In this document: positions 23,651 through 26,545 of the stretch, piece by piece
Position numbering within the stretch: the stretch's first letter is position 1
Layout: each line of letters begins with the position of its first letter
Source of the DNA: Paracoccaceae bacterium
GTDB lineage: Bacteria > Pseudomonadota > Alphaproteobacteria > Rhodobacterales > Rhodobacteraceae
Assembly: GCA_947504705.1 (NCBI GenBank)
Contig: CANNIA010000001.1
Location: 62,001 to 126,000 of the forward strand
DNA: 64,000 nt
Direction of reading: 5' to 3'
Notes under the pieces: generated by a model
Databases searched by the model: none
The model's input: only the letters and a program-made list of their open reading frames with translations
Told to the model about the DNA's origin: nothing
Made by a program: the position numbers and the translations under genes

Positions 23651-26545
23651 ATGCCAAACGCCGTTCACTGCCTGTCTGCCTTTCGGCGTGCCAGCTTCAG
23701 AATCCTTACCGTGATTGCAGCGCTTGCGCTGCCGATCCTGACCCCCGACACCGCAGAGGCCGCAACGGCAGCGCAATGTTATGATCCTGCGAACGCCCAG
23801 ACCGTGGGTCAGGCTGGCTGGACCGGATGTGAGGGCATGTACATCGTCAGGAACCGGGCCGAATTGGGGGCGGGCGTCGGCGCCGGGTTCAAGTTCACTG
23901 TCGCGGCCGTCGATTATACCTTTGCCGATGGCCCGAACCGGATCTTCACCGGCCAGGTCACGGACATGACGTTCCTGTTCGAGTCTACAAGCTTCAACGG
24001 TGACATCGGCTATTGGGACACGTCCAACGTGACCAGTATGGTAGGCATGTTCGCCGATTCGACCGCGTTCAACCAGGACATCGGCGGCTGGAATACGTCC
24101 AGCGTGACCGATATGATCTACATGTTCGCCTTTGCCCCGTTCAACCAGGACATCGGTGGCTGGGATACGTCCAGCGTGACCGAGATGAGCTACATGTTCA
24201 TCTTTACCCCGTTCAACCAGGACATCGGCGACTGGGATACGTCCAGAGTGACCAATATGGGCCAAATGTTCGATAGTGCGTCCGCGTTCAACCAGGACAT
24301 CGGCGGCTGGGACACGTCCAGCGTGACCAATATGCAACTCATGTTCGCCGATTCGACCGCGTTCAACCAGGACATCGGCGGCTGGAATACGTCCAGCGTG
24401 ACCAATATGGTCCGAATGTTCCGCGGTACGACCGCCTTCAATCAGGACCTGTCGTCCTGGAACGTCTCCCTGATCCCGTCCAAGCCCCTGGATTTCGACT
24501 TGGGCGCGACCTCCTGGTCGGACCCCGCATGGCGGCCGCAATGGGCGACCCGGGGCACGACGCTGCTGACAAGTGTCACCTCGCCCGATGCCAACGGCGC
24601 CTATGGGGTTGGCGATATCATCGCCGTCGTTGTCACCTTAAACCAGCCGGTCGGTGTGTTCGATCCGGGCTCGGCCGGCCCGCTGGAACTGCGGCTTGAA
24701 ACCGGTACGACCGATCAGGTGGCCACCTATGTCTCCGGCAGCGGCACGTCGAAGCTGCGCTTTGAATATACCGTCATGGCTGGCGACGAAAGCGCCGACC
24801 TTGACTATGCCTCGACCAGCGCGCTGGAGCTGAACGGGCTGGAAATCCGCAACGGCGACGCAACGGTGGCGGCCACCACCCTGCCAGCCCCCGGCGCGGC
24901 CGGGTCACTGGGCGCGAACAAGGCCATCGTCATCGATAGAATCCCGACGGTCGAAATCACCGGCGCACCCGCTGCCGTAAACTCGACCGCCGCCTTCTCG
25001 GTGAGCATCGTCTTTTCCGAACCCGTGGTCAGCATTGACGCGGGTGACATCACCGTTGCCAACGGCGCGGCGAGCAATCTGTTGTCCTTGGACGGCGGGG
25101 TCACCTGGACCACCAACATCACCCCGGACGGCAATGGCAACATCACGATCGACGTGGCGGCGGCTGTTGTTACGGATTACGCAGGCAACGACAACACCGC
25201 CGCAGCGCAGGTGGTCGTGACCTATGACACCGGCATCCCCAGCGTCGAAATCACCGGCCCCACAGACATTGTCGTCGGGAATTTTGCGGTGACCCTGACC
25301 TTCTCGGAACCGGTGACCGGGCTGGCCGAGGGTGACATCACCGTCACCGGCGGCACAGTCGTGGCAAGCTCGCTTGCGGGCAGCGGCGACACCTACACGG
25401 TCGACATCGCCCCCGATCTGGGCAGTCTGGTTCAGGTCTCTCTGGCTGCTGACATGGTCGTGGATGCTGCGAGTAACGGCAACGTGGCCTCCAACACCTT
25501 CGAGATCCAGGCCGGGTCTGCCGCCAGCGAGTTCGAGGCCAAGAAGGATGAGATCCGCCGCATCATCCGCGACGACGCCCGCCGGATGCTTTCCAGTGCC
25601 ATCGACTTCAACCAGAACCACGTCAGGTCCGCCCGCGACCGGTTCCGCGCCTCGCAAGCGATGGCCGCAGGCGAGGCCGAGCGCAGCGCCAATGTGCCCT
25701 TCGATGTCACCGGCGGGATCGAGGCGGATGGCCTGACCCTCTCGACCAGCGGCAGCTTCTACGGTCAGGTAGGCAGCGCCGATGGCGCGACCCGCCGCAT
25801 CACCTTTGGCGACTTTGACCTGCGCCGGGATGAGGACGGCTCGACCACCGCCACCTTCCGCGCCAATGTCGCGTGGGAGCGGATGTTGTCGGACCGCACG
25901 ATGCTCGGCTACTATGTCGGTGCCGAAGTCGGCCAGTCGCAGATCAAGGACAGCTTCACCGGCAAGCGCAAAGGCTATGGCCTGAACGCCGGGGCATATG
26001 TCGTCTCGGACCTTGGCCAAAGGGTGACGGCTGACGGCTTCCTCGCCCTTGGCATTGGCCGCCACCAGATCGACCTGACCGATGGCATCCTGACGGTGAA
26101 TGGCGACTACGACACCGCCAGCGCCATCGCCGGGGCCAGCCTTTCCGGTCTGGTCGAGTTCCAGGGCTTCACCCTTTCCCCCGAACTGTCCGCCGTCTGG
26201 GGACGCATGGACATCGGCGAGGTCGGCTTTACCGGTTACGCTTACGGCACCTCGGACAGCACCCTCTCGCTGGACTCCGGTCAGGTGACGCTGGCCAACC
26301 TCGCGCTTGCCACCGAAATCCGGATCCCGCTGATCCCCGGCAGCGACACGACGATGCTGACCCTGTCACCCAAGTTCTTCTGCCAGCGGGTCGATACCGA
26401 CAAGGAATGCAACGCAGGCGGTAGTGTCGGCTTCAGCCACAACTCAACCGACGGCCTGACCAAGGTGAACGCCCTGATCGGGGCGGACAGGTTCAACGGT
26501 AACACCCAGACCAGCCTCAGCTTCAATGTGGAGCACCGGTTCTGA
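23651..26545 (+). CDS. Autotransporter-like surface protein with BspA (DUF285) repeats and Ig-like domains
   Basis: Predicted secreted surface protein of 964 residues. In order: a signal peptide ending near TAEA (about residue 37) and a short N-domain with two Cys. Next come six and a half BspA/DUF285 repeats of 24-25 residues (115 to about 275; consensus [16 protein letters not shown]). Three Ig-like/cadherin-like modules follow (about 308-430, 431-528, 529-620; each later one opens with VEITG), then a charged helical linker (about 624-690). The last 270 residues alternate like an outer-membrane beta-barrel and end in Phe (VEHRF), the usual BAM recognition end. This reads as a type V autotransporter whose passenger is an adhesin-like repeat domain. 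The start at 23651 is preceded by TGGAG and gives a complete signal peptide. It is transcribed alone, followed by a convergent deaminase. The ligand is unknown. Confidence 0.85.
23993..24436 (+). repeat. BspA-type coding repeats (six units of 72-75 nt)
   Basis: Six in-frame units of 25, 24, 24, 25, 25 and 25 codons encode [12 protein letters not shown] repeats, followed by a partial seventh. The DNA is more alike than the protein needs: 63 bases at 24047-24109 recur without a difference at 24341-24403, four units later. This suggests recent duplication or gene conversion within the array. Confidence 0.9.

What the first reader, a model, noticed from the sequence alone, without database searches (positions are those of the whole stretch)
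23651..26545. Autotransporter carrying BspA-type leucine-rich repeats and Ig-like modules
The single 964-residue protein combines a signal peptide, DUF285/BspA repeats, three Ig-like modules, a charged linker and a C-terminal beta-barrel-like region ending in Phe. DUF285 repeats are best known from Firmicutes, Bacteroidetes and protozoa as adhesins; delivery by a type V barrel in an alphaproteobacterium would be an unusual architecture and an unstudied adhesin family.
Basis: partly seen in the sequence, partly recalled or inferred. Interest (0 to 1): 0.75.

Follow-up and report, generated by a model that had tools for sequence, protein, structure and literature searches.

The report
Repeat-bearing surface protein delivered by autotransporter
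An alphaproteobacterium carries a gene for a protein that looks built to push a stack of BspA-type repeats and Ig-like modules through its own outer-membrane barrel onto the cell surface, a pairing of two well-known building blocks that we did not find described.

Summary
In detail: window 23651-26545 (+) encodes one 964-aa protein with a Sec-type signal peptide, six full DUF285/BspA (PARCEL) units plus a degenerate last one, Ig-like modules, a long helix and a C-terminal beta-barrel ending in Phe. The protein itself does not hit the Pfam autotransporter model, but 15 of 27 aligned barrels of its family do and hit no other Pfam family; the family aligns profile-to-profile with PF03797 barrels (E 3.6e-7), and the model (pTM 0.80) has autotransporters as its four best PDB entries. 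I count 14 strands, not 12. The gene is accessory: 3 of 32 genomes of its genus have DUF285, at two addresses, and 25 of 28 examined loci show the site without it. Full repeats number 6, 7 and 3. Related bacteria also attach DUF285 to RTX repeats, and a genome of another alphaproteobacterial family has four DUF285 proteins with plain PF03797 barrels. So this is a real, rare combination of two known modules, not found in print: a new variant of a known kind. Surface exposure and adhesion are inferred, not shown.

The parts
23651..26545 (+). DUF285/BspA-repeat autotransporter gene, 964 aa
23651..23761 (+). Sec-type signal peptide (residues 1-37, A-E-A before the cut)
   Evidence: read by eye; the same DTAxA end in both orthologues
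23762..23992 (+). N-terminal segment before the repeats, with the Cys43/Cys60 pair kept in both orthologues
23993..24436 (+). six 24-25-residue DUF285/PARCEL repeat units (residues 115-262)
24437..24565 (+). degenerate last unit and C-terminal cap of the repeat domain (residues 263-305)
   Evidence: DUF285 proteins in L153 and L157 end in a like W/P-W-T/G-T stretch, by eye
24566..24940 (+). first Ig-like module (residues about 306-430)
   Evidence: no Pfam match; tblastn similarity to Ig-like domain proteins
24941..25225 (+). second Ig-like module, Big_12 (residues about 431-525); absent from both orthologues
25226..25510 (+). third Ig-like module, Big_12 (residues about 526-620; ends set by eye)
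   Evidence: (one of two stretches; its coordinates were not printed)
25523..25666 (+). predicted 48-residue helix before the barrel (residues 625-672)
   Evidence: drawn at 624-630 and 632-672
25691..25774 (+). beta-hairpin (strands 1-2, residues 681-708) ahead of the part that aligns with PF03797
25790..26542 (+). remaining 12 predicted barrel strands and the end, Phe964
26381..26410 (+). Cys911 and Cys920, Cys in 27 of 27 aligned barrels; on predicted strands 11 and 12 across a turn
22679..23485 (+). upstream alpha/beta hydrolase; next to tldD in genomes without the insert
26553..27086 (-). cytidine-deaminase-like gene that also lies beside the autotransporter gene in G023 (start not resolved)
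   Evidence: (by eye)

Best explanation
It is a type Va-like autotransporter with an unusual passenger. The protein is exported by Sec; its C-terminal barrel is built into the outer membrane, the helix at 625-672 threads the pore, and the N-terminal part is displayed outside. There the Ig-like modules act as a stalk that lifts a solenoid of DUF285/BspA repeats away from the membrane, to bind neighbouring cells, polymers or other surfaces. Shown by computation: the repeats, two of the Ig-like modules, the barrel's kinship with PF03797, variable repeat number, and accessory distribution at two chromosomal addresses. Inferred: translocation, surface exposure, solenoid and stalk geometry, and binding. 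Not known: whether the passenger is cleaved, and what it binds.
For: Domain hits. Barrel relatives in 27 of 394 genomes of the family sample; 15 of 27 aligned barrels hit PF03797 at E up to 0.01 and no other family; of 20 scanned singly 12 hit and 8 reach its 26-bit cut-off. Profile-profile alignment to five barrels of another family, four of which hit PF03797: 92.9%, E 3.6e-7, score 58.1, against 12.4-16.5 in 20 column-shuffled controls. C-terminal model pLDDT 86.0, pTM 0.80; best PDB entries NalP 2.8e-8, BrkA 7.9e-8, NalP 2.6e-7, AaaA 7.5e-7. 26 of 27 barrels end in F, W or Y. The same barrel family carries other passengers. Parallel case: four of five DUF285 proteins scanned from G997 carry PF03797, E 3.2e-19, 1.2e-16, 1.3e-15 and 1.8e-14.
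Against: The window protein itself has no PF03797 match. With only the five closest barrels as query the profile match is weaker (72.1%, E 3.4e-5). TM-scores to solved autotransporters are 0.38-0.47 of the query, and FadL (14 strands; recalled) reaches 0.51; TonB-dependent receptors also rank high. The model was made from 5 sequences, and of its five versions two are confident (mean pLDDT 86.0, 82.2, 60.8, 36.5, 34.1). The full-length model is poor (pTM 0.29), so the passenger's fold is not established. No binding partner or phenotype is known.
Confidence: 0.78

Rival explanations
1. It is an autotransporter as above, but the repeats are not an adhesin: they serve as a variable surface coat, self-recognition tag or decoy against phages or grazers.
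For: Full repeat units differ between the three orthologues (6, 7, 3), one Ig module is gained or lost, the repeat region is less conserved than the barrel (65 and 66% against 87 and 82%), and the gene is present in 3 of 32 genomes at two addresses.
Against: The same variability is expected of adhesins; nothing here separates the two. Not every passenger part is variable: the third Ig module is 89% identical in G013.
Confidence: 0.35
2. The C-terminus is an outer-membrane barrel of another kind (porin- or FadL-like, 14 strands) and the fused domains stay in the periplasm.
For: 14 predicted strands by my count; FadL ranks with TM-score up to 0.51.
Against: PF03797 is the only Pfam family hit by any of the 27 barrels at E up to 0.01; autotransporters take the best four places in the PDB search; a long helix precedes the barrel; DUF285 joined to plain PF03797 barrels occurs in G997.
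Confidence: 0.08
3. The repeats are exported by type I secretion or held by a lipid anchor, as in other DUF285 proteins, and the C-terminal barrel is incidental.
For: Four of the eight DUF285 proteins scanned, from three other genomes of the family, carry RTX repeats; lipobox-like starts are seen by eye in L143 and L229.
Against: The window protein has no RTX match, has a signal peptide, and lacks a lipobox by eye.
Confidence: 0.02
4. The reading is an assembly or gene-fusion artefact.
For: Many relatives are in draft genomes or MAGs.
Against: The same architecture is open in three species (frames of 1004, 901 and 813 aa), with the same neighbours in G023, and again in G092, a one-contig genome.
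Confidence: 0.01

Closest known systems
Type Va autotransporters (PF03797 barrel; NalP, BrkA, EspP, EstA)
   Same: Signal peptide, N-terminal passenger, helix, C-terminal barrel ending in an aromatic residue; homologous barrel family
   Different: Passenger is DUF285 repeats plus Ig-like modules; barrel too divergent for a direct Pfam hit; 14 strands predicted, with a hairpin ahead of the PF03797 part; Cys pair in 27 of 27
BspA / DUF285 / PARCEL repeat surface proteins (Roske et al. 2010, PMC2996958; abstract, sections 6 and 7 and a word search seen)
   Same: 25-residue repeats, patchy distribution, variable copy number, mostly predicted to lie outside
   Different: The topologies in their Figure 4 legend are lipoproteins, TM proteins and untargeted proteins; 'autotransporter' and 'outer membrane' do not occur in the main text
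DUF285-RTX proteins of the same family (L054, L055, L057, L059)
   Same: Same repeat module in related bacteria
   Different: Carry RTX calcium-binding repeats (type I secretion, recalled) instead of a barrel
Ig-like autotransporters of Rhodobacterales (Tabrizicola aquatica L020; Tropicibacter oceani L156 and Phaeobacter sp. G2 L232 plasmids, annotated as Ig-like domain-containing protein)
   Same: Same barrel family
   Different: No DUF285 repeats found

Membership tests
Type Va autotransporter | C-terminal beta-barrel homologous to PF03797 | tested here: met
   No direct hit for the window protein, but 15 of 27 barrels of its family hit PF03797, and profile-profile E 3.6e-7 to PF03797 barrels with shuffled controls
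Type Va autotransporter | 12-stranded barrel with a helix in the pore | tested here: inconclusive
   Helix predicted; 14 strands by my count in two models from the same 5 sequences. PF03797 matches lie within strands 3-14, which would leave 12. No coordinates were available to see whether the hairpin is in the barrel wall or the helix in the pore
Type Va autotransporter | N-terminal Sec signal peptide and passenger in front of the barrel | tested here: met
   Signal peptide by eye only; order of domains
Type Va autotransporter | C-terminal aromatic residue | tested here: met
   Phe964; 26 of 27 aligned barrels end in F, W or Y
Type Va autotransporter | Passenger exposed at the cell surface | not testable with these tools
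   Needs a protease or labelling experiment
BspA/DUF285 (PARCEL) repeat proteins | Tandem 25-residue repeats matching DUF285 and TIGR02167 | tested here: met
BspA/DUF285 (PARCEL) repeat proteins | Dyad symmetry in the repeat-coding DNA | tested here: inconclusive
   No folding excess over synonymous-codon shuffles (tract z -0.04, 100 shuffles; six units z -1.83 to 1.02, 200 each); the palindrome search of the paper was not repeated
Inverse autotransporter (intimin type, Ve) | Barrel N-terminal to the Ig-like passenger (recalled) | tested here: not met
   Barrel is C-terminal
RTX / type I secreted DUF285 protein | HemolysinCabind repeats | tested here: not met
   No match up to E 1

The most novel reading that the evidence does not exclude
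The DUF285/PARCEL solenoid is a portable passenger that alphaproteobacteria have coupled to type V barrels more than once: to the divergent, possibly 14-stranded barrel of the window and G092, and separately to ordinary PF03797 barrels (G997). A repeat solenoid would then stand in for the usual beta-helix as the part whose stepwise folding outside helps to pull the passenger through, and the window's barrel would be a structural variant of the type V translocator with two extra strands and a disulfide-pinned surface loop.
Probability: 0.3. Interest if true: 0.65.

Novelty: new variant of a known kind. Interest (0 to 1): 0.5.

Why it matters
DUF285/BspA repeats are widespread and mostly studied as surface proteins of mycoplasmas, oral bacteria and protozoa (partly recalled). 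Finding them on autotransporters gives a simple way to display and test them in free-living bacteria, shows one repeat module shared among unlike export routes, and offers a passenger that is not the usual beta-helix for asking how autotransporter passengers cross the outer membrane. If the barrel really has 14 strands, the rule that type V translocators have 12 (recalled) would need an exception.

Tried and rejected
Direct Pfam or NCBIfam barrel hit for the window protein: none. PDB sequence search: none, single at E up to 1 or profile at E up to 10. Full-length AlphaFold model: too poor to use. Folding selection in the repeat DNA: no signal. Promoter and terminator patterns: none found. Second copy of DUF285 or of the C-terminal domain in the own genome: none. 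One-clade test for the five DUF285 members of the 27-barrel tree: the tree needs three changes of the label (shuffles as low in 15 of 500), but a single clade is not rejected (p-AU 0.226), so independent gains within this barrel family are not shown. Alternation of hydrophobic residues as a test of the extra hairpin: strands 1 and 2 alternate (4.32, 1.27), but predicted strands 5, 7 and 8 do not (0.14, 0.00, 0.23), so the measure decides nothing (W and Y were given raised values). Barrel profiles against the other fetched DUF285 regions: the A4 profile, over 28 regions of the family sample, phylum sample and plasmids, found DUF285-linked barrels only in L061 and L062; with L226-L228 and four further plasmid records added, one search gave the same for A4 and nothing for A5; L156 and L232 have the barrel without the repeats. 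Barrels of yet another kind would be missed; only eight of those DUF285 frames were also scanned with Pfam. The Bartonella paper that matched 'DUF285' speaks of DUF2853.

Rows dropped: of the 35 places, 12 short, partial or weak ones were left out (23 of 35 used, plus 4 Tabrizicola rows). Of 30 loci, two weak paralogue hits (L186, L187) were left out. Places not fetched: G077 contig 108; G878 contig 19, G1023, G1054. Papers: listings only; PMC2996958 abstract, sections 6 and 7 and a word search; PMC3595295 one passage. Recalled, from no call: solved type Va barrels have 12 strands and FadL 14; RTX repeats go with type I secretion; BspA proteins are adhesins; the usual passenger is a beta-helix; intimin-type barrels are N-terminal.

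Full report
Observation. The frame at 23552-26545 (+) has an ATG with a GGAG in front at 23651 and gives 964 aa. Pfam finds DUF285 (E 3.8e-63) and two stretches of Big_12 (E 1.4e-30); NCBIfam finds the PARCEL repeat TIGR02167 in seven stretches. The 75-nt array at 24002-24448 (6.0 copies, score 513) stands far above the four other tandem arrays of the 64 kb (52-71). There are six full units and a degenerate seventh. G+C of the repeat tract is 0.557 against 0.629 for the gene and 0.626 for the window. It is the only DUF285 gene and the only copy of this C-terminal domain found in its own genome.

Organism. 'Family' below is the family used by the genome search.

The C-terminus. The window protein does not hit PF03797. 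Relatives of its last 341 residues occur in 27 of 394 genomes of the family sample, drawn about one per genus. In an alignment of 27 such barrels (23 of the 35 places plus four Tabrizicola rows), 15 of 27 hit PF03797 Autotransporter, best E 1.4e-13, and no other Pfam family is hit at E up to 0.01. Scanned singly, 12 of 20 hit and 8 of 20 reach the 26-bit cut-off. Against a profile of five barrels from another alphaproteobacterial family (G997; four of five hit PF03797), the 27-row profile gives 92.9% probability, E 3.6e-7, score 58.1 over 119 columns in the middle of the barrel; 20 column-shuffled versions score 12.4-16.5. The five closest barrels alone give 72.1%, E 3.4e-5.

Structure. The model of residues 624-964 has mean pLDDT 86.0 and pTM 0.80 from five sequences; two of the five versions are confident. 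It shows a helix (625-672) and, by my count, 14 strands, taking one interrupted strand as one and leaving out two short ones in a loop. The full-length model (pTM 0.29, most of the barrel under pLDDT 50) draws the same 14. Foldseek against the PDB puts NalP, BrkA, NalP and AaaA first (E 2.8e-8 to 7.5e-7), with EstA, EspP and Hbp in the top 50 listed; TonB-dependent receptors and FadL are there as well. TM-scores, by query length, are 0.38-0.47 for the autotransporters and 0.49-0.51 for FadL. PF03797 matches start at about strand 3 or later, so strands 1-2 look like an extra hairpin. I accept a beta-barrel of the autotransporter kind and leave 12 against 14 open. Two cysteines (911, 920) are Cys in 27 of 27; by the usual topology they flank an outward-facing turn (inference).

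Relatives and architecture. Two genomes of the genus besides the window's have DUF285 (3 of 32), in the same architecture: G023 (MAG KLAP11, L018) and G013 (MAG Loclat_bin-14305, L019). Identity to the window in G023 and G013 is 87 and 82% in the barrel, 65 and 66% in the repeat region, 55 and 81% in the first Ig module, 55 and 89% in the third. Full repeat units number 6 (window), 7 (G023) and 3 (G013), and one Ig module of the window is missing from both. T. aquatica and MAG Prado224 have the same barrel without DUF285, behind Ig-like modules as read by eye. Of ten frames of the wider barrel family scanned in full, seven carry PKD, fn3, Big_12 or SpaA modules, one (L062) DUF285 with Ig-like modules, one (L098) no recognised passenger, and one (L097) short FAD-binding matches at its start. 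L062 comes from a second genus, G092: a DUF285-Ig-barrel frame of 1222 aa; a second DUF285 locus there (L061) has its barrel in a separate frame just downstream.

How DUF285 is delivered elsewhere. In the family sample 9 of 394 genomes have DUF285. Four proteins from three of them (L054, L055, L057, L059) carry RTX repeats; L063 and L064 have neither RTX nor PF03797. In the phylum sample 6 of 398 genomes have it; the frames fetched did not match the two barrel profiles. In the class sample 7 of 385 have it, 6 over the cut-off; one genome, G997, has at least five DUF285 proteins with a barrel-like C-terminus, four of five with PF03797 at E 3.2e-19 to 1.8e-14. These do not match the window's barrel profile by hmmsearch, so I take them for a separate pairing (inference). 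Within the 27-barrel tree the five DUF285 members need three changes, but one clade is not rejected (p-AU 0.226).

Locus history. Of 28 loci of the upstream hydrolase in the genus, 25 have tldD close downstream (one of them, G019, with a second hydrolase between), two do not and have the autotransporter gene there (window, G023), and one is cut by a contig end. In both occupied loci a deaminase-like gene lies beside it. In G013 the hydrolase-tldD junction has no insert (L165) and the autotransporter gene lies beside a tRNA-His on a 5-kb contig of a MAG (L019); the matching tRNA-His region of the window, 35.6-37.4 kb, has no such gene. The gene is thus accessory and has occupied two addresses, the second resting on one draft contig; the direction of movement is not known.

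Mechanism. Sec export, barrel insertion and display of the N-terminal part outside follow from established knowledge of type V secretion, not from a test here. The adhesin role is borrowed from BspA proteins (recalled). A variable coat or decoy fits the data as well.

Literature. Searches for BspA/DUF285/PF03382 with autotransporter and Tabrizicola with autotransporter listed no paper whose title or abstract start tells of such a protein; of the first 35 hits 20 were listed, and most subscription papers are not held. The PARCEL paper (PMC2996958; abstract, sections 6 and 7) describes lipoproteins and TM topologies and has no occurrence of 'autotransporter' or 'outer membrane'.

Verdict. It is a new variant of a known kind.

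Noticed in passing
L061 (G092:C1:2695500-2706500): A second DUF285-Ig gene whose barrel is in a separate frame immediately downstream, near a G-rich stretch, in a one-contig genome: broken gene, sequencing error or phase variation cannot be told apart.
   Followed up: partly
L219-L225 (G997): One alphaproteobacterial genome with 18 DUF285 matches and at least five DUF285 proteins with barrel-like C-termini, some with ASH and PKD modules: an expanded family of repeat autotransporters.
   Followed up: partly
L097 (G385:C16:67400-72000): A 1156-residue frame with FAD-binding matches at residues 27-57 and the window-type barrel at its end: an odd combination, possibly an enzyme passenger or a frame that runs through two genes.
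   Followed up: no
window 27120-27998: Second alpha/beta hydrolase, 47% identical to the one at 22679-23485; in G019 a 69% identical copy sits between the hydrolase and tldD.
   Followed up: partly
window 23512-23550: Two copies of a 19-bp repeat in the 166 bp between the hydrolase and the autotransporter gene.
   Followed up: no
L063, L064 (G348, G385): DUF285 repeats in frames of 877 and 1014 residues with neither RTX repeats nor PF03797; purpose unknown.
   Followed up: no
L230 and L231 (Vibrio sp. THAF191d and Vibrio campbellii large replicons): Many DUF285 places (23 and 10) on large secondary replicons; the frames fetched are short proteins with a signal-like start and no barrel-profile match.
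   Followed up: no
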